Assembly: GCA_017470535.1 (NCBI GenBank)
Contig: JAFUYP010000008.1
Span: forward strand, 1 to 47,431
DNA from: Ruminococcus sp.
Lineage (GTDB): Bacteria > Bacillota > Clostridia > Oscillospirales > Ruminococcaceae
Direction: 5' to 3'
Length of the DNA: 47,431 nt
Shown here: piece after piece, positions 30,904-41,383 of the stretch
Position numbering within the stretch: position 1 is the first letter of the stretch
Layout of the letters: every line of letters starts with the position of its first letter
Notes under the pieces: generated by a model
Database searches by the model: none
Told to the model about the DNA's origin: nothing
Seen by the model: the letters and a program-made list of their open reading frames with translations, nothing else
Translations under genes and position numbers: made by a program

Positions 30904-30980
30904 GCGCCAGTAGCTCAGCTGGATAGAGTGACTGGCTACGAACCAGTAGGTCGGGGGTTCGAGTCCCTCCTGGCGCACCA
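30904..30980 (+). tRNA. tRNA-Arg(ACG)
   Basis: Complete cloverleaf: acceptor GCGCCAG (30904-30910) with CTGGCGC (30970-30976), D-arm GCTC/GAGT, anticodon stem ACTGG/CCAGT with loop CTACGAA giving anticodon ACG, T-loop TTCGAGT, discriminator A and an encoded CCA. A34 would be edited to inosine to read CGU, CGC and CGA. It stands alone, with its own promoter and terminator. Confidence 0.97.
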
Positions 30981-30988
30981 ATACTCCA

Positions 30989-31033
30989 TAATCCGAACAC
31001 TTTTGTAAACGAAAAGGTGTTCGGATTTGTTGT
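30989..31033 (+). terminator. tRNA-Arg terminator hairpin, copy A of 45-bp direct repeat
   Basis: AATCCGAACAC pairs with GTGTTCGGATT, extended by TTTT/AAAA with one bulge, then TGTTGTTTATT. It begins 9 bp after the tRNA. The same 45 bp recur at 39282-39326 with one mismatch (31010 C, 39303 T). Confidence 0.8.
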
Positions 31034-31049
31034 TTATTACCAATAATTT

Positions 31050-31085
31050 TGGCGCCGATATAAAAAGTCGGCGCCATGTTTTTAT
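31050..31085 (+). terminator. second hairpin terminator
   Basis: TGGCGCCGA (31050-31058) and TCGGCGCCA (31068-31076), loop of 9, then TGTTTTTATTTT. It is oriented for the plus strand, so it would stop read-through from the tRNA into the opposing ABC operon. Confidence 0.75.
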
Positions 31086-31747
31086 TTTACTATCTTTCCG
31101 TCGGATATTTCAATGATCCTTCCACACTCCTCCGCCACCTTCGGATCGTGCGTAACAATAACCACCGTCCTGCCCTGTTTGTTGAGCGACTTAAACAGCT
31201 CCATTATCTCAGCAGATGTCTTTGTATCAAGCGCACCCGTAGGCTCGTCGGCAAGAATCATAGAGGGTTCATTGACTATTGCCCTTGCGATAGCCACACG
31301 CTGTTTCTGTCCGCCCGAGAGCTTGTTGCAGGGCTTTTTTGCAAGCTCCTCAATACCAACAGATTTCAAAGCCGCAAGCGCTTTTTCCTTTTTGCCCTTT
31401 ATCTTTTTCTTTGAGAAATTGAGCGGTATCATCACATTCTCAAGCGCTGTAAAATCCTCAACAAGCGCAAAATCCTGCATTACCATACCTATTTTCTCGT
31501 TGCGTATGCGTGCATATTTACGTTCTGACAAGCCCTTGACAAGCGTGTCATCAATTCGGTATTCCCCGTCCTGATAGGAATCAATGCAGGCGAGGATATG
31601 CAAAAGCGTACTCTTTCCTGCACCCGACTTGCCTATGATAGCCACAAGCTCGCCGTCTTTGATGTCACACGATACTCCGTGCAGAGCCTCAAATTCATTG
31701 GCTTTCTTTGGGTTGTAGATTTTTTTGATGTTTGTAAGAGTTATCAT
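31082..31747 (-). CDS. ABC transporter ATP-binding protein of exporter operon
   Basis: 221 aa from the ATG at 31747, which overlaps the permease stop (ATGA) and has GGAGGAAGG upstream; the frame is open further only inside the permease gene. Walker [10 protein letters not shown] (about 38-46), Q-loop [18 protein letters not shown], signature LSGGQKQR, Walker [14 protein letters not shown]-loop VTHDP. It is the energy subunit for the two FtsX-like proteins encoded just upstream. This group of ATPases (MacB/bacteriocin-export type) works with peptide or protein substrates. Confidence 0.92.
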
Positions 31748-32883
31748 TTTACCTTCCTCCAGAACGTAAGATTTGAAAGTGTTGACACAAGCTGGCACAT
31801 TACTATGCAGGCGCATATTATTAGTGCAGATAAGGGCAGGAGATTATCCATAAGCCTTATGCCGTTATTGGCAAATACACCCGTAAACTTCATACCGAGG
31901 AGTGCTATAGCGGAAAACAACACCGAGGAAATAACTATGCACAAATTCTTGCCGAGCATTACAAAAAACAAGCTAATAGATCCTGCGCCGCAGTTATACA
32001 GAATATCCATATCGACCTTGTTGTCAAGTGAGGTAACGATACAAAAGCTGATGATGCCGATGATAACGGCTATTGATATTATGTAGATAAAAGGAACGAA
32101 GCGTGCGTATTGTTCTTTCAGCGCTCTAATTGTTCGGGTGTTTATTCTATCAAGATCCCAAATCTGTCCATTTTGTTTTAATAACTCAAGATTATGCTGT
32201 ATTTCATTTTCCGAACAATCATCAAAAGATATTAATATGGTATCAGATAAAAAGAATGGTTCAATCTCACCAAAGATTATTTTTGCTGATGAAAGTCCCA
32301 TTATCAAAAACTCTGATTCATCCACACCAGAAGTATAGACTCCATGCATTCCGGTTACATCTTCACAAGCATTAATAATTGGAAAATAAGTAGTCTGTGT
32401 AAGTGTTCCGCTTATTTCTATTTCACCGCTTTCGGTTTTAATAATATCACCTGTTTTATACCCGGATAAATATGATGCTATTGCATATCCTGATGCAATA
32501 CTTCCGGAGGATGTTGTATAAACAAGCTTATCATATATCCTGTCATCAATTATATGAATCACTTGTACGTTTTTGCCATCTTCTGTATAAGGAATAGTAT
32601 AGCTTAAATAAACATTTACATTTCCCTTTAAGTCATCAAGTGTTTTAAAAAGATTAGTTCTACTGATTGATTCTTCATAATCAGAGGCATATGAATTATC
32701 AAAGTACAAAACGCCTTCTTTTTTAAGAATATCTTCATATGGTACATATAAAACAGAAAGATTATTATAAAACCCAAGTAATGAATTTGCAACTACAAGC
32801 AGCATAGCAATTTCAAGTGCAATTAGCAGATTGGTTTTTATATTATTGCAAAAAAAGCTAAAACCATATTTTATCCCACTCAT
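31744..32883 (-). CDS. FtsX-like ABC permease subunit 2
   Basis: 379 aa from ATG 32883; a GTG at 32892 is an alternative but sits too close to AGAAGGG. One membrane helix is near 18-40 and three more at about 260-365 (VPFIYIISIAVIIGIISF, LFFVMLGKNLCIVISSVLF, LLPLSALIICACIVMC). The roughly 220-residue domain between them lies outside the cell. This 1+3 layout is that of MacB/FtsX-fold permeases. Sequence is AT-rich and poorly conserved. It overlaps the ATPase gene by 4 bp and follows subunit 1 directly. Confidence 0.8.
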   Translation of the reverse strand: MSGIKYGFSFFCNNIKTNLLIALEIAMLLVVANSLLGFYNNLSVLYVPYEDILKKEGVLYFDNSYASDYEESISRTNLFKTLDDLKGNVNVYLSYTIPYTEDGKNVQVIHIIDDRIYDKLVYTTSSGSIASGYAIASYLSGYKTGDIIKTESGEIEISGTLTQTTYFPIINACEDVTGMHGVYTSGVDESEFLIMGLSSAKIIFGEIEPFFLSDTILISFDDCSENEIQHNLELLKQNGQIWDLDRINTRTIRALKEQYARFVPFIYIISIAVIIGIISFCIVTSLDNKVDMDILYNCGAGSISLFFVMLGKNLCIVISSVLFSAIALLGMKFTGVFANNGIRLMDNLLPLSALIICACIVMCQLVSTLSNLTFWRKVK

Positions 32884-32884
32884 A

Positions 32885-33955
32885 TCATACACCGCCCTTC
32901 TGCGCTCTTTTATAGCTTTCGACCGGTAATGTTGAGCTGTATTTATAGCTAAGAAATGCCGAGACTACCGCTGATACAATAAAATAAGTAACCGCAAATA
33001 TAAGTATATACTTTTTATTATCAAAAAGCGCAAACCCTTTGTATTTTACACTCAATTTAGGAAGTAAACACTCAAATAGAATTACAGATACTGCAAGACT
33101 ATCTATATACGAGCCAAGCATTTCGATAATGTTGATCATAAAAACTTTATAGCTCGACGCACCGCATATCTTAAATATCGCCGTCTGCTTTTCACGCTTT
33201 CTGAACAGAAAGCTAAAATAAACGCTGATATTTACTACCGCAATAAGCAAAATAAATGCAGATGTAAAAATAAACATATTATCGATCTGTATCTGCAAAA
33301 GTGTTTGCGGCTCAGGTGAATCAAGGCTCTGAATATTACCGAATAATTCATATATCTTATCATTGATCTGTGATATTCGTTCCTGACTGATTGCATCGTT
33401 TAACTGTATTTGAAACCAGCTTACTTTTGCTGTAGCAGGATAATCATCAAGATTGATTGCTATTGTAGGGCGTCTGTCTCCAACAGATGTGACTGTAAAA
33501 TCCACACCGTCAACAGTAAAAATATCTCCTGCTTTATATTCAGAACCGGCATAGCATGAATATCTTGAGCCAACCATTCTTGTATTCATTCCTTTACCAA
33601 TGCCGGCATACAGTTCACAGTTATCATTATCTCCATATCCAATAATACCGAATGATTCGACATCTTCGTCTAAAAAAGAATAAAGATCAAATATGCTATC
33701 TTTAATATCTTCCCACGCAGGGGCTATCGTTGCATCATTCGGAATACTCTCTTCATCATATTCTGAATAAAAATCAACAACAAACAATAATTGTTCAAAA
33801 CGTGCTTCTTCTTTGGCTTTTAGTGAATTATTAATAAGGCCGACTGATATATATACTGATAATATTGCCGCGATCTGCGACAATACTATCAGTATAGCCA
33901 AAAAAGCATTCTTGTTAATTATTGTTCGATAATTCTTTAAAGAATATCGTATCAT
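32885..33955 (-). CDS. FtsX-like ABC permease subunit 1
   Basis: 356 aa with a membrane helix at about 15-40, a large outside domain, and three helices at about 230-345 (FIFTSAFILLIAVVNISVYF, MLGSYIDSLAVSVILFECLL, ILIFAVTYFIVSAVVSAFL). The RKREKQTAIFKICGAS segment before helix 3 is the cytoplasmic coupling element seen in FtsX-type permeases, which touches the ATPase. The start overlaps the secreted-protein gene by ATGA. With subunit 2 it would form a heterodimer. Base composition is AT-rich like the rest of the island. Confidence 0.85.
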   Translation of the reverse strand: MIRYSLKNYRTIINKNAFLAILIVLSQIAAILSVYISVGLINNSLKAKEEARFEQLLFVVDFYSEYDEESIPNDATIAPAWEDIKDSIFDLYSFLDEDVESFGIIGYGDNDNCELYAGIGKGMNTRMVGSRYSCYAGSEYKAGDIFTVDGVDFTVTSVGDRRPTIAINLDDYPATAKVSWFQIQLNDAISQERISQINDKIYELFGNIQSLDSPEPQTLLQIQIDNMFIFTSAFILLIAVVNISVYFSFLFRKREKQTAIFKICGASSYKVFMINIIEMLGSYIDSLAVSVILFECLLPKLSVKYKGFALFDNKKYILIFAVTYFIVSAVVSAFLSYKYSSTLPVESYKRAQKGGV

Positions 33956-34446
33956 CTGGGTTTTACCACATTACTATAATGGAATTCAACCGGATAAGAA
34001 TCTTTATTTGTATAGTATAAGTATCCTAAATTTGATCTTTTTGCCCAAGTGTCTTTCGGTTCAATTGTAGATGTTCCAACTGTTTTGCTTGATCCGGAGT
34101 TTTCTTTCTGTGCCGCTTTTATTGTGATAAGGTCGAAGTCATTTGTGGAAGCATTGTACCTCCAAGGATAAAACTTAGCAATTTTATAGCTTACATCATA
34201 TCCATTGTAGTCTCCTTGTTGATTTACGGTCATTTTTGTCTGATTATTATTTGCATACATCCAACCATATATTCCGTTAGTCGTTGTACTTTTTTTCATT
34301 GGATTCCCACTGATAATTCCTTCTGAATTTGATCCACTTGGTTTATACTTACGTGGATTGTTAGCTGCGCTAACTCCCATAGCCATTGTTCCTGCCATTA
34401 ATGCTGCACCTACAAATGCAACTATTCTTCTTTTAACTGATGTCAT
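33952..34446 (-). CDS. secreted protein coupled to ABC exporter
   Basis: 164 aa. A signal peptide (about 1-27, KRRIVAFVGAALMAGTMAMG then VSAANN) precedes a polar, Tyr/Asn/Lys-rich mature part of about 136 aa with no Cys. The mature part looks beta-rich (YNGYDVSYKIAKFYPWRY, LGYLYYTNKDSYPVEFHY). No family is recognised. The stop overlaps the permease start (ATGA), so it is made together with the ABC subunits. The gene order (small secreted protein, membrane proteins, ATPase) is like lactococcin-972-type loci, where the ABC proteins give immunity or export. That comparison rests on layout and not on similarity. GGAGG lies before the ATG. Confidence 0.78.
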   Translation of the reverse strand: MTSVKRRIVAFVGAALMAGTMAMGVSAANNPRKYKPSGSNSEGIISGNPMKKSTTTNGIYGWMYANNNQTKMTVNQQGDYNGYDVSYKIAKFYPWRYNASTNDFDLITIKAAQKENSGSSKTVGTSTIEPKDTWAKRSNLGYLYYTNKDSYPVEFHYSNVVKPR

Positions 34447-34469
34447 TTATAATTCCTCCATTCAATTAT

Positions 34470-34498
34470 AGTATATCACCAATATAGATGATATACAA
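34470..34498 (-). promoter_or_regulatory. promoter and operator-like repeat of exporter operon
   Basis: Minus strand TTGTAT (34493-34498), 17-bp spacer, TATACT (34470-34475). An inverted repeat GTATATCA-N10-TGATATAC (34471-34496) covers both boxes, so a regulator bound there would block the promoter. Confidence 0.65.
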
Positions 34499-34596
34499 TA
34501 TGTCTTTTCTTAAACGTTTCTTAAGATTGAGCTGTTCTGAAAAAGCGTCAATATAACTACAACTTGCATAAAGCAAAATCCTTAAATTACAGCACG

Positions 34597-34636
34597 AATA
34601 CTTGGCTATTCCAAGTATTTACAGTACTGTAAATAC
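34597..34636. promoter_or_regulatory. overlapping palindromes between two secreted-protein genes
   Basis: AATACTTGG/CCAAGTATT (34597-34619, 5-nt loop) overlaps a perfect 22-bp palindrome GTATTTACAGT/ACTGTAAATAC (34615-34636). The two cannot form together. They lie downstream of the 34685-35110 gene and upstream of the exporter operon. They could be a terminator, a switch or a protein site. The rest of the gap 34447-34684 is AT-rich without a gene. Confidence 0.5.
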
Positions 34637-34684
34637 ATTCAAAACATTGGAATCATCTTCCTTCCTGCATAAAGCGTTTTTCAT

Positions 34685-35110
34685 TCAGCATGAAGCTGTT
34701 TTGCTGTAAACAGTTATCGTCTCATAGCTGTTGCCGCTGTAGACCTTTGCAACGGTTTTAAGACGATATGTGCCGCTACTTAACGATGACTTCGTGGTTG
34801 TATAAATTGCAAGCCATGAGTTAAATGTTTTGCTCCAGCTTGTTACATTTGTCCACGAATTTCCACTTTTCTTCTGTAAAGTCTGTGTTACAACCACTTT
34901 CGTTGCCAAACCCGAAAACCCACGAACATTGCTTTTACATGATGCCGTATTATTTGATATTGACATTACTGAGGTTATATTTGCTGTATACTGATAATCC
35001 TCTATAATTTCAATATCAATATGTGTTTCCTCCTCAGGTGAAGCATATGCAGAAATACACATTCCCATTGTCATAATCAATGACAATAAAAAAGCAATAA
35101 GTCGCTTCAT
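34685..35110 (-). CDS. small secreted protein, DUF6147-like
   Basis: 141 aa. A signal peptide is at about 1-24 (MKRLIAFLLSLIMTMG, cleaved near SAYA-SP). The mature part is beta-rich with the pattern seen in DUF6147-type proteins: SISNNTASCKSNV, VTQTLQKKSGNSWTNV, SGTYRLKTVAKVY and a C-terminal Cys two codons from an aromatic/Thr-rich end. Two Cys (in TASCKS and at the last residue) may form a disulfide. Function is unknown. GGGGGGAT lies before the ATG, and an intrinsic terminator ends only about 17 bp upstream, so expression depends on read-through or an unseen promoter. Confidence 0.75.
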   Translation of the reverse strand: MKRLIAFLLSLIMTMGMCISAYASPEEETHIDIEIIEDYQYTANITSVMSISNNTASCKSNVRGFSGLATKVVVTQTLQKKSGNSWTNVTSWSKTFNSWLAIYTTTKSSLSSGTYRLKTVAKVYSGNSYETITVYSKTASC

Positions 35111-35126
35111 ACTATCCCCCCTTTTG

Positions 35127-35173
35127 TAAAAAAATAGAGTGTAGAGCGGCTTTTAACCGACTCTACACTCTAT
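35127..35173 (-). terminator. strong intrinsic terminator between anti-sigma and secreted-protein genes
   Basis: ATAGAGTGTAGAGCGG (35134-35149) pairs with CCG-A-CTCTACACTCTAT (35157-35173), 16 bp with one bulge. On the minus strand it is followed by TTTTTTT. It is directly upstream of the ribosome site of the next co-directional gene and so could act as an attenuator. Confidence 0.85.
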
Positions 35174-35203
35174 GATGATAATTATTCCTATTATGTGAGC
35201 TAA

Positions 35204-35878
35204 TTATTTGATTTTTGTAGACTTGCACAACTTTAATATGCTGTCTTTGTTTAAATTGCTTTGAATTGTAAATATGTACTTGCCAGTATCCCATATGTAT
35301 GTTGTATCATATTCATTTTCAATTACCAAGTATTTCTCGTCGCCGTCAATATGCTCTTTGTATTCCGTATATTCGTTATCATAGTTTTGTTCATAACAAG
35401 ACTTTGTATACTGTGTAAACAGAATATAATCATTTTCCCTAAAATAAGAAATATCAATAGAATTTCCAGTTCTTTCATCTCCTGCTTTTTCAAATCCTTC
35501 CGGCAATGCAGATATATAGTATTCTTCCTCAATAGTTTCAGGATAACCGCTATCAGTACCGCTTTCTACCGTAACAACACTATGATCCGAGAAAATGCTT
35601 GTGATAAAGTCAAAAAACGCCTCACGAATTGCCCTAACACTCAATGCCGAAGCGGACAAAACAACAAACGCAACAATAACGCAGGCGGCTCTGCGTCCTG
35701 CTGTGCTTATCATACTGAAATACGGCTTGCGCTGTCTTTTAATGAGCTTGTTCATTTTCCTGTTATGACGTTCACTAAATTGGTGCTCTGTATAGAGTGG
35801 AAGGTCATTGATATATTCGGCAAATTCTTCAGCAAGCACTTCCTCCATAGCATTGCCGATAATAGCTTTACTATCCAT
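35204..35878 (-). CDS. anti-sigma factor-like membrane protein with DUF4367-type domain
   Basis: 224 aa. The cytoplasmic N-terminus (about 1-58) starts with helices typical of sigma-binding segments and is rich in Arg/Lys before one membrane helix (about 64-84, AACVIVAFVVLSASAL). The outside domain (about 90-224) fits DUF4367: YYISALPEGFEKAG, YILFTQYTKS and YIWDTGKYIFTIQSN. Its start overlaps the sigma gene by 8 bp. Family knowledge and gene order suggest it holds the sigma factor at the membrane until an outside signal is sensed; the signal is unknown. Confidence 0.82.
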   Translation of the reverse strand: MDSKAIIGNAMEEVLAEEFAEYINDLPLYTEHQFSERHNRKMNKLIKRQRKPYFSMISTAGRRAACVIVAFVVLSASALSVRAIREAFFDFITSIFSDHSVVTVESGTDSGYPETIEEEYYISALPEGFEKAGDERTGNSIDISYFRENDYILFTQYTKSCYEQNYDNEYTEYKEHIDGDEKYLVIENEYDTTYIWDTGKYIFTIQSNLNKDSILKLCKSTKIK

Positions 35879-36404
35879 TATAACCCTCCTCTTCCAATAT
35901 TTTTTTTAGCGATTGTTTAGCCTTTTGCAGTCTTTTTCTTGAAGCCGCCTGACTAATGCCAAGAGTATCTGAAATCTGCTTATGATCCATGCCAAGTGAA
36001 TAATACAAATAAATTATCTCCTTATCTGTCTGATTCGGATCATGCATACATTTTTTAAGTATTTGCAGATCAACATTCGCAATATCATCATCAGATACTA
36101 TAGTTTCATCAAGCGGCAGATTGTCAAGATCGTTCTTTTCTTTCCGCAGGATCATATTAGCTGCGTTTCTAATAGTAATGATGAGATATTTATGCTTTTT
36201 GTGAGCATTTAAAATGTTAACAGTTTGAAAATTCTTTGCTATAGATAAAAACGCATCGCTCACGGCTTCCTCAGCAAGAGCATTATTATTAATGATTTTC
36301 ATAGCAATAGAAAAAAGAAGAATACGATTTTCATAATACAGCTTTTCAAAAGCTTTTTTGTCGCCTTCATCGTCGATAAGAGACATATACATCATCGGCA
36401 GCAT
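35871..36404 (-). CDS. ECF-type sigma-70 family sigma factor
   Basis: 177 aa. Region 2 is at about 10-80 (FEKLYYENRILLFSIAMKII, AEEAVSDAFLSIAKNF, KYLIITIRNAANMILR). Region 4 is at about 125-172 (TDKEIIYLYYSLGMDHKQIS, LGISQAASRKRLQKAKQSL). No region 1 or 3, as in ECF factors. Start ATG 36404 has AGGGA about 12 nt upstream. The overlapping anti-sigma gene is the likely partner. Target promoters may include the secreted-protein and ABC genes in the same island, which is inference. Confidence 0.9.
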   Translation of the reverse strand: MLPMMYMSLIDDEGDKKAFEKLYYENRILLFSIAMKIINNNALAEEAVSDAFLSIAKNFQTVNILNAHKKHKYLIITIRNAANMILRKEKNDLDNLPLDETIVSDDDIANVDLQILKKCMHDPNQTDKEIIYLYYSLGMDHKQISDTLGISQAASRKRLQKAKQSLKKILEEEGYNG

Positions 36405-36629: not shown

Positions 36630-38876
36630 CTATTCACCGGACACAAATATGTTTATTTGATTACAGGTAATCGTTTCAATAGCAGATACAGCCAGTCTTG
36701 ACGGGAGCGATATGCATTTAAGGCTTTTGCAATACTCGATAAAATAACTGTCAAGTTTCTCAACACTATCCGGTATGTACAGAGTTTCTATGTCATTACA
36801 CCTTAAAAATGCTCCGTCCTTTATTCTCTTTGTTCCTTCGGGAATGGTTACGCTTTTCTTCGCTTCCGGGCAGTATATAAGCTCGTTTGTCCCTTTTATA
36901 TAAAGAGCTCCATCGTAAGATGTATAGACCGGATTATTCTGTGAAACATTTATCTCTTCAAGGTTGCTGCAAAGCGCAAAGGCTGTGCGGCAAAGTCTGT
37001 CAACACTGTCGGGGATGCTTATAGCTTTCAACCCATCACATCTGGAAAATGCAAGGCCGTCTATGCGCTTCAAACTGGCTGGCAGCACCAGTCTTTGAAG
37101 CCCCTTACATGAGAAAAATGCCTCTTTACCTATACTCTCCAGCTTGTCGGGGAGTATTATCTCTTCTAATCTTTTGCATTCGCTGAAAGCGTGAGCGCCT
37201 ATTGTTGTTACCGTCTCCGGAATATCAACTGTTTCCTTTTGTTTCGGACAGCGTATCAATGTCTTCAGTGCCTTATCATACATCACGCCGTCAAAGGAGA
37301 TGTAAGACTTATTATTCTCATCAATGTTTATCTCAGCCAGGTCTTCACAAAAAACAAAGACCGTATTGATATTCTCTGCACTTGCAGGTATGCATAACCT
37401 TCTTAGCCCTGTGCATTTTCCAAATGAATAAGCCTCTATATCCTTTACCCCTTCCGGTATGCAAAGGCTCTCATTATTCGTATTGCAGTATATCAGCTTT
37501 GAATAGTCCTTTGTATAAAGCACACCATCTTTTGATGAGTAGCTTTGGTTTTTCTCGTCGGCAATTATTTCGGATAAAGAATCACAGCCGAGAAACGCCT
37601 TACTTTCTATACACTTTACACTTTGCGGCAGCCTGAGCTTTTTTAGTTTTTTGCAGCACAAAAAAGCACGCTCGCCTATACGAGTAAGCCCTTCGGGAAG
37701 TACTATCTCTTCAAGCTCATGACAGGAACGAAATGCCTGAGAAGCGATAATTCTTACAGTATCAGGTATAATTATCTTAGATCTCTTCGGCGGGCAGAAA
37801 ACAAGCTCTGTAATCGACTTATTATATACCACACCGTCAATAGATGTGTATAAAGGGTTATTGATAGCAATACTTATCTTTGACAGCTCATCAGATGAAC
37901 GCTTTATCAGCGGCTTTATATCATTAAGCGTTGAGGGAACTGATATATTGCGAAGCTCATCGCACCAGGATAAAGCACCTTCAGAGACCTCACGCACACC
38001 CTCCGGAATAATAAGCCTTTCTTTTCCCACAGGGCATATAATCAATTTTTGCTGCTTAGCAGAATATAATACACCGTCGTTGATATAATAATACTTGTTA
38101 TCACTGCTGACAGTTACATCCTTTACTTTCACAAGCTCAACAGATAGATCAGCGTCTATCGACTGTACACTTGCAGGTATATAGATATTTGTTGCAGTAG
38201 CAAGTGAATGTGAATGCTCACTTAAATACTTCTTATCTATCACTTGTGTGCCGTCCTGGATCAGGAAACTCTTTTCAGCGGGCAAGGATTCGGGGTCAGA
38301 TATCATTATTTTTATTCTTTCTGATATCCCGGCGTCTTCATCATCAGACGATAGCTGTATATATGTATATGGTTCAGAGATAACTGCATACTCTCCACAA
38401 AAGAGTCTGCTGGCCAGACGTTCATTTATTCCGGGTTGAGAATCCTGCACAGAATATGTCATCATAAAACGCTTGCCCGATTCACAAAACTTATTGAAGA
38501 TACAAATGAGCGCTTGCTGTGTTGCTTCTTTCCCCGCAAGTTCCTGTATATCATCAACAAGAAGAACATCAGCCTTCATATACTTTTCAATAAAGACATC
38601 TTTTGAACCGCAGCTTGTTATACTTCTTATAAGCGAAGATGCCATATCCGTCGTTGTTGTGATAATCACATCAAGCTCAGGTGAATATTTCTCTATCTCT
38701 TTTTTGACCGCATAGAGCAGGTGCGTCTTACCTGTTGCCGTACCGCCGAATATTGCCAGCGGCTTTGAATCTGCTTTTTCTGCAAATTGCTTTGCCTTTT
38801 CAAACGCCTTTCTGTTTGTGTCATTCACTTCAAAACTATCAAATGTAAAACGACTGCCTTTTTTATTTGCCATCAT
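36630..38876 (-). CDS. DnaA-like AAA+ ATPase fused to leucine-rich repeats
   Basis: 748 aa with no signal peptide. Residues about 10-195 match the AAA+ core of DnaA/DnaC-type initiators: FTFDSFEV, Walker A GGTATGKT (44-51), Walker B VLLVDD (104-109) with IQELAGKEATQQ, a sensor-1 strand FMMTYS, and the arginine-finger box ERLASRL (152-158). DnaA's C-terminal HTH is missing. Instead about 235-740 is a long series of BspA-type LRR_5 repeats (IPEGV..I...AF..C..L) with interspersed NNPLYTSIDGVVY inserts. LRR_5 proteins are usually secreted; this one should be cytoplasmic. The NTPase-plus-LRR order is like NLR/STAND sensors. AAAGGAGG precedes the ATG. Confidence 0.88.
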   Translation of the reverse strand: MMANKKGSRFTFDSFEVNDTNRKAFEKAKQFAEKADSKPLAIFGGTATGKTHLLYAVKKEIEKYSPELDVIITTTTDMASSLIRSITSCGSKDVFIEKYMKADVLLVDDIQELAGKEATQQALICIFNKFCESGKRFMMTYSVQDSQPGINERLASRLFCGEYAVISEPYTYIQLSSDDEDAGISERIKIMISDPESLPAEKSFLIQDGTQVIDKKYLSEHSHSLATATNIYIPASVQSIDADLSVELVKVKDVTVSSDNKYYYINDGVLYSAKQQKLIICPVGKERLIIPEGVREVSEGALSWCDELRNISVPSTLNDIKPLIKRSSDELSKISIAINNPLYTSIDGVVYNKSITELVFCPPKRSKIIIPDTVRIIASQAFRSCHELEEIVLPEGLTRIGERAFLCCKKLKKLRLPQSVKCIESKAFLGCDSLSEIIADEKNQSYSSKDGVLYTKDYSKLIYCNTNNESLCIPEGVKDIEAYSFGKCTGLRRLCIPASAENINTVFVFCEDLAEINIDENNKSYISFDGVMYDKALKTLIRCPKQKETVDIPETVTTIGAHAFSECKRLEEIILPDKLESIGKEAFFSCKGLQRLVLPASLKRIDGLAFSRCDGLKAISIPDSVDRLCRTAFALCSNLEEINVSQNNPVYTSYDGALYIKGTNELIYCPEAKKSVTIPEGTKRIKDGAFLRCNDIETLYIPDSVEKLDSYFIEYCKSLKCISLPSRLAVSAIETITCNQINIFVSGE

Positions 38877-38914
38877 AATATGTCCTCCTTTAGCAACTCG
38901 GCTTTTGCACTGAT

Positions 38915-38920
38915 ATTATA
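38915..38920 (-). promoter_or_regulatory. -10 box upstream of AAA-LRR gene
   Basis: TATAAT on the minus strand about 40 bp before the start codon. No good -35 is present at 17 bp (CGGAAA), so the promoter may need an activator or another sigma factor. Confidence 0.45.
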
Positions 38921-39066
38921 TCATCACAGAAATGCATTTTCCGAAGATGTGGGATTGCGGACAGGAAATTCTCTTTTTTGTACAAACCGGCGACAAATAA
39001 AATGTGCATTATGTATAATCTACTCGTATAGAAGTGGTTCTATTAACATCGAGGCGTTTGCAAATC

Positions 39067-39281
39067 CTACAAAGCATCGTATATCTTATGATACACCACC
39101 TGATTGGGATAGTATTTATAATCTGCAAAAACCGAAATACCGTTACGGCAGAAGTATTCCAGTATCGCCGCAGCACAGCCTGCGCTTCGGCTTTGGCCGT
39201 ATTCGCACCGGCAGATGATATTCTTGCCCTGCGTATAAGCTGAAATGATAAACAAAGCAATATCATCACCTTCGGGAAATC
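39067..39281 (-). pseudogene. truncated tyrosine/dual-specificity phosphatase fragment
   Basis: The minus-strand reading frame gives about 70 residues of the C-terminal half of a cysteine phosphatase. The fragment includes the CX5R loop CEYGQSR, followed by SAGCAAAILEYF, and ends KYYPNQVVYHKIYDAL. The upstream half is absent, and homology stops at the 45-bp hairpin repeat at 39282. An ATG at 39255 exists but lacks a ribosome site. It appears to be a broken gene cut at the island edge. Confidence 0.65.
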
Positions 39282-39326
39282 TAATCCGAACACTTTTGTA
39301 AATGAAAAGGTGTTCGGATTTGTTGT
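39282..39326 (+). repeat. copy B of the tRNA-Arg terminator direct repeat
   Basis: 44 of 45 bases match 30989-31033, including the whole hairpin. No tRNA sequence precedes it. It marks the far edge of the AT-rich island and directly abuts the phosphatase fragment. Confidence 0.88.
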
Positions 39327-40290: not shown

Positions 40291-40369
40291 CTCAATAAAA
40301 CAACCGAACCAATATTAACAAGATCATGAAGGATCCTGCCAGGATCAGTTTGCCCGGGAGGTGCAGCCT

Positions 40370-41383
40370 ATGCTGATAAAAAGCAAAATACTGACAGCTT
40401 TGTTATCCGTCGTATTATCCTTTCAGCTCACTGCCTGCGATGTTTTGGGTATATCAGACCATACTAATGAGTCTGATGACAGTTCTTCGCATATCACGTC
40501 TGCACCTGTTCAGCTGCCCGATGAAACAGACTTTTCGTCAAAGACCGAGCCTTTTGAGCTGTCTATGGCTGGTGAATATACAGGCGAAGCGGTAATAACA
40601 ATAAACGATAATATCCCGTATTTCAGCAGTTCTGACCTGACAACAGAGTCTTATGAGAATTACAGCCCGTTAGACGAGCTTGGAAGATGCGGTACTGCAC
40701 AAAGCTGTATCGGCAGGGATCTGATGCCCAAGGAAAAGCGTGGTGCCATAGGCATGGTAAAGCCTTCGGGGTGGCATCTTGTTAAGTATCAGGGCATTGA
40801 CGGCAACTATCTATACAATCGCTGTCATCTTATCGCATATCAGCTGACGGGCGAAAATGCAAATGAACAAAATCTGATAACCGGCACAAGGTATATGAAT
40901 ACTGAGGGTATGCTGCCGCTTGAAAACAAGGTGGCGGAGTACATAAAGTCAACAGGCAACCATGTGATGTACCGTGTTTCTCCTGTTTTTGACGGTAATG
41001 ATCTTTTATGCAGGGGCGTTTTGATGGAGGGCTATTCGGTCGAGGACGAGGGCAGGGGAGTATGCTTTTGCTGCTTTGCGTATAACGTTCAGCCGGGGGT
41101 CACGATAGATTATTCTGACGGCGCATCAAGCGGACCTGAGTTTGACGAAGATACCACAAAGGAGACCCAAAAGACCGGCAGATCAGAAAAAGACGAAAGC
41201 ACATCTGAAATAACACTCAGGGAGGACACGACATACGTTTTCAACAAAAGCTCTCACAAGTTCCATTTGCCGGGCTGCGACAGCGTAAAGGATATAAGAC
41301 CGGGCAATCTTGAAGAATTCAGCGGCACAAGAGATGAGGCGATAGAAAAGGGGTATAAGCCTTGTAAGAGGTGTGAGCCGTAA
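40370..41383 (+). CDS. secreted DNA/RNA non-specific endonuclease lipoprotein
   Basis: 337 aa from ATG 40370, with GGGAGGTG upstream. A lipoprotein signal ends in the lipobox LTAC (Cys23), so it is anchored outside the cell. The nuclease domain (about 65-250) has NRCHLIAYQLTGENANEQNL with His153, matching the NUC/EndA beta-beta-alpha-Me family where DRGH is usual; here RCH replaces RGH. A Ser/Glu/Thr-rich linker is followed by a C-terminal module with paired Cys (FHLPGCDSVKDI and CKRCEP), of the type found on many Firmicute nucleases. Likely roles are nutrient scavenging from DNA or DNA processing at the surface. Confidence 0.88.
   Translation: MLIKSKILTALLSVVLSFQLTACDVLGISDHTNESDDSSSHITSAPVQLPDETDFSSKTEPFELSMAGEYTGEAVITINDNIPYFSSSDLTTESYENYSPLDELGRCGTAQSCIGRDLMPKEKRGAIGMVKPSGWHLVKYQGIDGNYLYNRCHLIAYQLTGENANEQNLITGTRYMNTEGMLPLENKVAEYIKSTGNHVMYRVSPVFDGNDLLCRGVLMEGYSVEDEGRGVCFCCFAYNVQPGVTIDYSDGASSGPEFDEDTTKETQKTGRSEKDESTSEITLREDTTYVFNKSSHKFHLPGCDSVKDIRPGNLEEFSGTRDEAIEKGYKPCKRCEP

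What the first reader, a model, noticed from the sequence alone, without database searches (positions are those of the whole stretch)
36630..38876. Cytoplasmic DnaA-like AAA+ ATPase fused to a long leucine-rich-repeat array
Seen: intact Walker A, Walker B and an arginine-finger box in DnaA-like spacing, no DNA-binding HTH, no signal peptide, then about 500 residues of LRR_5 repeats. Known: BspA-type LRR_5 proteins are normally secreted, and NTPase-LRR proteins such as NLR/STAND members are intracellular sensors, some of which defend bacteria against phage. Inference: this may be an NLR-like sensor built on an initiator-type AAA+ domain, carried on an acquired island. No effector domain is visible, so it could act through oligomerisation or a partner.
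Basis: partly seen in the sequence, partly recalled or inferred. Interest (0 to 1): 0.82.

Follow-up and report, generated by a model that had tools for sequence, protein, structure and literature searches.

The report
DnaA-type ATPase fused to leucine-rich repeats
A Ruminococcus-like bacterium has joined the ATP-driven core of a DNA-replication starter protein to a long protein-recognition array that stays inside the cell; the core's close relatives sit in gene clusters that seem to handle ADP-ribose damage, so this may be a new kind of bacterial alarm protein.

Summary
Observation confirmed. ORF 36630-38876(-) encodes 748 aa: a DnaA-type AAA+ domain (Bac_DnaA 3.6e-29; Walker A, Walker B and arginine-finger residues kept; no DNA-binding domain), no hydrophobic N-terminus, then about 540 aa of LRR_5.

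Context changes the reading. The ATPase belongs to a small family seen as 16 loci, all Ruminococcus or Oscillospiraceae, in one scan of about 85,000 genomes. Relatives are solo, carry a helical tail, or are fused to DnaB_C. In 13 of 16 a phosphatase-like gene follows directly; 10 of 16 have a WYL regulator and 10 of 16 an ADP-ribose enzyme. This resembles the ARG-centred conflict systems predicted in PMC9503650, whose text mentions neither AAA nor LRR.

The window gene keeps that operon's upstream element and lies beside a truncated phosphatase, in a low-GC 8.3-kb segment bounded by direct repeats after tRNA-Arg. Cytoplasmic LRR_5 proteins occur in related operons (for example R. albus plasmid pRUMAL01), once fused to a hydrolase; the window array itself is closest to a secreted protein.

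Best reading: an LRR-gated AAA+ sensor or adaptor. It is not a STAND/NLR member. The LRR fusion is a singleton in a MAG; function is untested.

The parts
36630..38876 (-). 748-aa DnaA-type AAA+ / LRR_5 fusion gene
   Evidence: open frame; Pfam; AlphaFold model
38394..38855 (-). DnaA-type AAA+ ATPase domain (residues 8-161)
   Evidence: Bac_DnaA match residues 8-161 and genome place; PDB profile hit 2z4r 1.5e-34
38721..38747 (-). Walker A, residues 44-52
   Evidence: invariant G44, G49-K50-T51-H52 in 15 aligned proteins
38550..38567 (-). Walker B, residues 104-109
   Evidence: V104-L105-L106, D108, D109 invariant, V107 nearly
38406..38423 (-). arginine-finger box ERLASR, residues 152-157
   Evidence: R153 and R157 invariant; the box's role in DnaA is recalled; low pLDDT in the model
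38274..38381 (-). linker, residues 166-201
   Evidence: pLDDT below 50 at residues 171-201
36633..38270 (-). LRR_5 array with its N-terminal cap, residues 203-748; five DG-x-(L/V/M)-Y cassettes
   Evidence: Pfam LRR_5; model; cassettes at residues 267, 347, 450, 529, 655
38901..39022 (-). conserved upstream (promoter/operator-like) element shared with the WYL/ADP-ribose operons
   Evidence: nhmmer and alignment; only strong copy in the own genome
38915..38920 (-). -10-like TATAAT inside the element
   Evidence: TATRAT in all 11 aligned copies
38883..38889 (-). ribosome-binding site AGGAGGA
   Evidence: sequence
39070..39285 (-). remnant of the operon's CX5R phosphatase-like gene (about 70 aa; first ~75 residues missing)
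   Evidence: 54-79% identity to proteins of 14 loci; frame and stops
30989..31067 (+). direct repeat 1 (terminator-like hairpin) just after tRNA-Arg
   Evidence: 79 nt, 85% identical to repeat 2; only two copies of its 38-nt core in the own, incomplete genome
39282..39360 (+). direct repeat 2; its edge coincides with the truncation of the phosphatase
30904..30980 (+). tRNA-Arg(acg) beside the segment
   Evidence: ARAGORN and Rfam

Best explanation
The protein is a DnaA-type AAA+ ATPase, probably derived from DnaA, with an LRR_5 array as its recognition domain. The ATPase belongs to a family that is a regular part of WYL-regulated operons of Ruminococcus and near relatives, together with ADP-ribose-processing enzymes and a CX5R phosphatase-like protein. 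Those operons most likely detect or undo ADP-ribosylation or RNA damage caused by phage or rival toxins. Proposed mechanism: the operon promoter is released under attack. The LRR array binds a damaged or foreign macromolecule. Binding lets the AAA+ domain, which keeps its ATP site and arginine box, assemble with its neighbours, and the assembled form acts on or recruits a partner. Shown: domain anatomy, family, operon context, shared upstream element, truncated phosphatase, non-hydrophobic N-terminus. Inferred: derivation from DnaA, LRR ligand, oligomerisation, effector partner, defence role. Anatomy and context I hold at about 0.85; the sensor mechanism alone at about 0.4.
For: DnaA-type domain. 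Family of 16 loci (architectures): 6 solo, 8 with a helical tail, 1 fused to DnaB_C, 1 partial. Phosphatase-like gene directly downstream: gaps of 9-74 nt in 12 loci plus L054, so 13 of 16 (that of L053 is a short, broken frame). WYL cluster in 10 of 16. An ADP-ribose enzyme in 10 of 16 by cluster membership, with Pfam on representatives. Upstream element in 9 of 16 loci strongly and 1 weakly, plus the window, and in two same-genus genomes whose cluster lacks the ATPase. LRR_5 proteins as operon members: R. albus pRUMAL01 WYL-LRR-GIY-YIG-hydrolase-hypothetical-phosphatase; L060 phosphatase-LRR-DnaA/DnaB-PARG-hydrolase; L228 LRR fused to the hydrolase beside the phosphatase; L235 and L236. The LRR protein RUMAL_RS18650 is 53% identical to that of L235 and 45% to the LRR part of L228. 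Purifying selection on the N-domain against 8 relatives: pN 0.18-0.23 against pS 0.64-0.75. Tree of 60 domains: the family and 24 chromosomal DnaA lie apart from phage DnaC-like loaders.
Against: The DnaA-LRR fusion is a singleton, in a MAG of 76% completeness. In the own genome the phosphatase is a remnant and only a generic WYL protein was found (E 3e-34, against 1e-114 or better in two relatives), so the operon nearby is broken. In the tree the DnaB_C-fused member falls outside the clade of DnaA plus the rest, so the family is not recovered as one clade; support there is 0.28. Among the LRR proteins compared, the closest array is a secreted protein of the same genus (37% over 368 aa, 236 bits), the next the operon LRR of L236 (32% over 370 aa, 179 bits). 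Region counts alone do not show LRR enrichment: 2 clear signal-less LRR ORFs in 20 phosphatase regions against 1 in 20 control regions. The phosphatase label rests on a CX5R motif and a sub-threshold DSPc hit (21.4 of 33.5 bits); no solved relative was found. No effector domain. No experiment.
Confidence: 0.5

Rival explanations
1. A helicase-loader-like factor. The DnaA-type domain works with DnaB-like RecA ATPases to block or redirect replication during attack, and the LRR only positions it.
For: DnaB_C is fused in L060 (as L044), fused to NADAR next door in L058 (as L042), and present in the same-genus cluster L177. The domain resembles DnaA, DnaC and DnaI.
Against: A DnaB-like ATPase was seen in only 2 of 16 family loci (not every neighbour was scanned against Pfam); none was seen in the window segment. 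The window protein lacks the DNA-binding domain. By eye the DnaB part of L060 lacks a normal Walker A.
Confidence: 0.18
2. An AAA+ adaptor or remodeller that brings ADP-ribosylated or otherwise damaged proteins to the operon's repair enzymes. It is repair machinery, and the LRR is a client-binding domain rather than a switch.
For: Partners include de-ADP-ribosylating enzymes and a phosphatase-like protein; PMC9503650 section 3.8, read in full, proposes peptide-binding chaperones in similar operons. A same-genus cluster also holds a PNKP-ligase RNA-repair protein (L176).
Against: No ClpP-type partner was noticed among the proteins scanned. DnaA-type domains are not known unfoldases (recalled).
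Confidence: 0.2
3. A relic: the operon decayed, and the fusion is an orphan with little or no present function.
For: Truncated phosphatase cut at the segment edge; apart from the ATPase and LRR_5 matches, the operon proteins found only this remnant near the gene; singleton fusion.
Against: A 748-aa intact frame, conserved upstream element and ribosome-binding site, conserved catalytic residues, and low pN/pS over the family; the pN/pS does not isolate the time since the fusion.
Confidence: 0.15
4. An assembly chimera of two genes in the MAG.
For: Only one assembly shows it; LRR_5 is abundant in this genome (50 matches) and could mislead assembly.
Against: In-frame join inside one low-GC segment; GC3 alike on both sides (0.35 and 0.40); the best LRR match listed elsewhere in 396 family genomes is 43% identical (which scored only 3 candidates a genome), and no close copy showed among the own genome's LRR ORFs fetched.
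Confidence: 0.05

Closest known systems
ARG-centred, WYL/Nudix-regulated ADP-ribose conflict systems (PMC9503650, section 3.8, read in full)
   Same: WYL regulator, ADP-ribosylglycohydrolase, NADAR, a CX5R phosphatase-like partner, restriction-type nuclease, variable modules around a core
   Different: The paper's text has no occurrence of AAA, DnaA, leucine or LRR and none of Ruminococcus; section 3.8 names actinobacteria, planctomycetes and proteobacteria. Here a DnaA-type ATPase and LRR_5 proteins are recurrent members.
Bacterial NLR / bNACHT and other STAND NTPases (PMC12169576, passages)
   Same: cytoplasmic NTPase plus leucine-rich repeats at the C-terminus
   Different: DnaA-type AAA+ instead of NACHT or another STAND module; no N-terminal effector; LRR_5 (BspA) repeats
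Chromosomal initiator DnaA, domain III
   Same: ATPase core, Walker A/B, arginine-finger box
   Different: match ends at about residue 165, so no lid recognised in the window protein (profiles of the tailed relatives do run on into the next DnaA part); no DNA-binding domain; found in addition to the genome's own dnaA
BspA-like secreted LRR_5 proteins
   Same: the repeat itself (PDB 4gt6, 4fs7); closest array compared is of this kind
   Different: no hydrophobic N-terminus, N-terminal ATPase

Membership tests
DnaA (replication initiator) | DnaA-type AAA+ core | tested here: met
   Bac_DnaA 3.6e-29; 2z4r 1.5e-34; near DnaA in a weakly supported tree
DnaA (replication initiator) | C-terminal DNA-binding domain and full-length equivalog score | tested here: not met
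   no DnaA C-terminal model listed; TIGR00362 116 of 343.9 bits needed
STAND / NLR | STAND-class NTPase (NACHT, NB-ARC or AP-ATPase) | tested here: not met
   no STAND model listed for the window protein at E<=10
STAND / NLR | C-terminal LRR sensing domain | tested here: met
   LRR_5 2e-68; sensing itself untested
STAND / NLR | N-terminal effector domain | tested here: not met
   the ATPase starts at residue 8
ARG-centred ADP-ribose conflict system (for the family, not the window gene) | de-ADP-ribosylating enzyme with a WYL/Nudix regulator | tested here: met
   ADP-ribose enzyme in 10 of 16 loci, WYL in 10 of 16
ARG-centred ADP-ribose conflict system (window locus) | the same genes at the window locus | tested here: not met
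   only a phosphatase remnant and the upstream element
ARG-centred ADP-ribose conflict system | no coupled ADP-ribosyltransferase | tested here: inconclusive
   none among the operon proteins scanned, but several remain unassigned
BspA-like secreted LRR_5 protein | signal peptide | tested here: not met
   hydropathy 0.62 against 2.1 or more in 21 of 22; no dedicated predictor available
Known anti-phage systems (PADLOC 2023) | strong match to a system protein | tested here: not met
   only AbiO and Nhi, about 1e-3

The most novel reading that the evidence does not exclude
A replication-initiator ATPase has been turned into an NLR-like receptor: bacteria evolved 'nucleotide-switch plus leucine-rich repeats' independently of the STAND class, from DnaA, in connection with an ADP-ribose damage-response operon in which cytoplasmic LRR_5 modules are used with different effectors (ATPase, hydrolase, stand-alone).
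Probability: 0.3. Interest if true: 0.87.

Novelty: new variant of a known kind. Interest (0 to 1): 0.62.

Why it matters
If the reading holds, an initiator-type AAA+ has been recruited outside replication, and the NTPase-plus-LRR receptor plan arose a second time from another NTPase. It also names a compact, testable operon family (WYL, NADAR/ADP-ribosylglycohydrolase/PARG, DnaA-like, phosphatase-like, LRR) in Ruminococcus, some copies near recombinase-like genes and a related one on a plasmid, with a shared upstream element. The listings of my literature searches showed no paper on such a DnaA-type/LRR combination.

Tried and rejected
Rejected: IstB, DnaC or DnaI as nearest relative of the N-domain (much weaker scores). 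Not found: phage or plasmid carriage of this ATPase. Not supported: the window array as a direct capture of the operon LRR family; the best BLAST match is a secreted same-genus protein, and an N-cap alignment was ambiguous. Not established: LRR enrichment near the phosphatase by region counts. In the 20 phosphatase regions I found 6 LRR ORFs: 2 clearly signal-less (L235, L236), 2 at a region edge or with a doubtful start, 2 with a signal. In the 20 control regions, placed by hand on contigs of 12 genomes, I found 6, of which 1 signal-less. In nine loci chosen earlier, so not independent, there were 4 distinct LRR genes, all without a strongly hydrophobic start. The reciprocal search did not re-find the phosphatase in 5 of the 20 regions (L235, L240, L241, L244, L247), three of which the search had listed with a stop inside. 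One weak phosphatase hit (G262) was not fetched. Not established: a clean empty site. G192 has the tRNA-Arg, one repeat copy after it and the same left flank, but its right flank differs. Dropped from the 18 loci: L063 and L064 (27%, and partial 41%). L048 and L061 are near-identical, so the 16 are not all independent. The upstream-element profile was seeded with the window and four loci, so only L048, L050, L057, L058, L059, L061 and the same-genus copies are independent. The genome-contig scan used two short peptide patterns, so 16 is a lower bound; searches added one further frame, G407 (176 aa, no operon gene recognised on its 7.4-kb contig), while G423 is the same contig as L054. Foldseek could not be run.

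Full report
What is there. The ORF at 36630-38876(-) is 748 aa. Pfam gives Bac_DnaA at residues 8-161 (E 3.6e-29) and LRR_5 (2e-68). NCBIfam gives DnaA TIGR00362 at 116 bits over residues 7-169, far below its whole-protein cut-off. A profile of the window domain and three relatives finds solved DnaA structures first (2z4r, 1.5e-34), DnaC at 2.6e-8 and DnaI at 5e-4. The LRR part matches solved BspA-like LRR proteins (4gt6, 3.8e-40). Walker A, Walker B and the ERLxSR box are kept; both arginines are invariant in 15 aligned proteins. That these are arginine-finger positions in DnaA is recalled. In the window protein the DnaA match ends at about residue 165-169, so no lid is recognised; profiles of the tailed relatives run on to residue 215-227 against DnaA, so those may keep part of it. 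The model has a Rossmann-type core at 20-165, low confidence at 145-159 (which includes the arginine box) and 171-201, then the solenoid.

Cytoplasmic. Of 22 other ORFs fetched from the same genome whose LRR_5 array resembles this one, 21 have a strongly hydrophobic N-terminus (12-residue mean 2.1 or more within 60 residues). The window protein has 0.62, and L182, a zinc-ribbon-like LRR protein, has 1.16.

The family. A search of 396 family genomes showed three relatives standing clear of DnaA. A scan of genome contigs gave 18 loci, of which I count 16 as the family: Ruminococcus (R. flavefaciens, R. callidus, others) and two Oscillospiraceae MAGs (NCBI places Ruminococcus in Oscillospiraceae). 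Architectures: 6 solo domains of 174-185 aa, 8 with a C-terminal helical domain of about 160 aa, 1 fused to DnaB_C and 1 partial (AlphaFold of the tailed form). In an order-wide draw of 394 genomes only the window genome matched at 1e-42. Two genus-wide searches (16 and 30 genomes) added one further solo-length frame, G407. No other LRR fusion was seen. In a tree of 60 domains the family and 24 chromosomal DnaA lie apart from phage DnaC-like loaders. The window is the first branch of a 14-tip family clade; the DnaB_C-fused member falls outside DnaA plus that clade, with support of 0.28, so the family's unity and its exact origin are unresolved. Against eight relatives, pN is 0.18-0.23 and pS 0.64-0.75.

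The operon. All-against-all comparison of neighbours, with Pfam on representatives, shows a recurrent operon: a WYL regulator (10 of 16 loci), variable genes, the DnaA-like gene, then a CX5R phosphatase-like gene. The phosphatase cluster is in 14 of 16. It is directly downstream in 13, with gaps of 9-74 nt in the 12 measured; in L053 that frame is only 80 aa; in L060 it lies upstream. The phosphatase label rests on the CX5R motif, invariant in 9 aligned members, and sub-threshold DSPc hits (21.4 of 33.5 bits in L049); a PDB profile search found nothing. ADP-ribose enzymes occur in 10 of 16: ADP-ribosylglycohydrolase in L049, L051, L053 and L056; NADAR in L048, L050, L059 and L061; NADAR-DnaB_C in L058; PARG in L060. 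Of the six others, L047 and L052 are short contigs, L054 starts about 1 kb before the gene, and L062 holds a partial gene; L055 and L057 have their WYL gene and still lack one. Other members are PDDEXK_4 (L057), a YqiA-type hydrolase (L049, L056, L060), and several families with no Pfam match. A cluster of serine-recombinase-like proteins, named by eye, lies within 8 kb in L049, L050, L054 and L058.

The upstream element. A 122-bp stretch directly upstream of the window gene (38901-39022) recurs between operon genes: strongly in 9 of 16 loci and weakly in L059, directly after the WYL gene in L051, L053, L057 and L058, elsewhere a gene or more further on or, in L049, with no WYL gene in view. 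All 11 aligned copies keep TATRAT and ATCTTCG. In the window's genome it is the only strong copy (79 bits; next 17 bits). Two same-genus genomes have a weaker copy (32 and 36 bits) in a WYL/phosphatase/hydrolase cluster without the DnaA-like gene. So the window gene is probably driven by the operon's own promoter.

The locus. The nine 1-kb windows from 31 to 40 kb have 33-44% GC; 32 of the 38 others have 46-53%. The segment is bounded by 79-nt direct repeats (85% identical) beginning just after tRNA-Arg. The 38-nt core has only these two copies in the (incomplete) genome. The right repeat coincides with the point where a phosphatase remnant loses its first ~75 residues (39285-39070). No integrase was recognised in the segment (three of its ORFs have no informative match), and a clean empty site was not found. 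The other named genes there (ABC transporter, FtsX-like, ECF sigma, DUF4367) are not operon members.

The LRR link. In R. albus 7 plasmid pRUMAL01 (typed mobilizable) the order is WYL, LRR protein, GIY-YIG nuclease, YqiA hydrolase, hypothetical, and a 'hypothetical' that is the phosphatase family by my search. That LRR protein starts MGFIIN with no hydrophobic stretch and is 53% identical to the LRR protein of L235 and 45% to the LRR part of L228. L228 is an LRR_5 array fused to the hydrolase beside the phosphatase. L060 has phosphatase, LRR_5, DnaA/DnaB, PARG, hydrolase. L236 has WYL, PDDEXK, hydrolase, LRR on one strand. Against this, among the arrays compared the window's is closest to a secreted same-genus protein (37% over 368 aa), ahead of the L236 operon LRR (32% over 370 aa), and simple region counts show no clear excess. 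My reading is that LRR_5 is a module these operons use, and that the window fusion may have taken its array from the host's own LRR stock.

Comparison. PMC9503650 section 3.8 (read in full) predicts ARG-centred systems with WYL or Nudix regulators, rhodanese-phosphatase enzymes, NADAR and nucleases that counter viral ADP-ribosylation. A term search of its text finds no AAA, DnaA, leucine or LRR. PMC12169576 (passages) describes NLRs as a STAND NTPase plus LRRs, with effector, NTPase and sensor in that order; the window protein fails the NTPase and effector tests. Literature searches for the combination returned nothing that fits, judged from the listings.

Verdict. The 'NLR-like' label is fair as an analogy and wrong as membership. 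The operon family is the larger finding. Mechanism and defence role remain inference.

Noticed in passing
window 40361-41383: Endonuclease_NS_2 protein with an Ada-type zinc domain and, by eye, a lipoprotein-like start; 54% identical over 277 aa to the nuclease just upstream of the WYL-LRR operon on R. albus pRUMAL01. It may be a further relic of the same gene block.
   Followed up: partly
L058 6575-7747 (same as L042 8195-9367): NADAR fused to a DnaB_C ATPase, directly upstream of a DnaA-like gene.
   Followed up: partly
L060 7989-9341: DnaA-like/DnaB_C fusion whose DnaB half appears, by eye, to have lost its Walker A while the DnaA half keeps it.
   Followed up: no
L176, L177, L178: In same-genus genomes, clusters with WYL and phosphatase-family genes, NADAR, small signal-less LRR_5 proteins, a PNKP-ligase RNA-repair protein (L176) and a DnaB-like ATPase (L177), some next to genes that look by eye like addAB.
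   Followed up: partly
L051 3343-4314 and related: A ~315-aa family, in several copies in some operons, with only a marginal Pfam hit; a guess is the chaperone-like components of PMC9503650.
   Followed up: no
MT835647.1 22084-22506 (L271): A 23-kb unannotated 'Bacteriophage sp.' record from human faeces carries the phosphatase family at 56% identity, with a WYL-like fragment near it.
   Followed up: partly
window 31082-36404: Low-GC block of ABC ATPase, FtsX-like permease, DUF4367 and ECF sigma genes; the ABC ATPase has a 95%-identical copy in G249 beside the same 38-nt repeat.
   Followed up: partly
G192:C9:41771-41808: A copy of the 38-nt repeat overlaps the 3' end of a gene that looks by eye like a serine recombinase, on the contig that also holds a phosphatase/WYL/NADAR cluster.
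   Followed up: no
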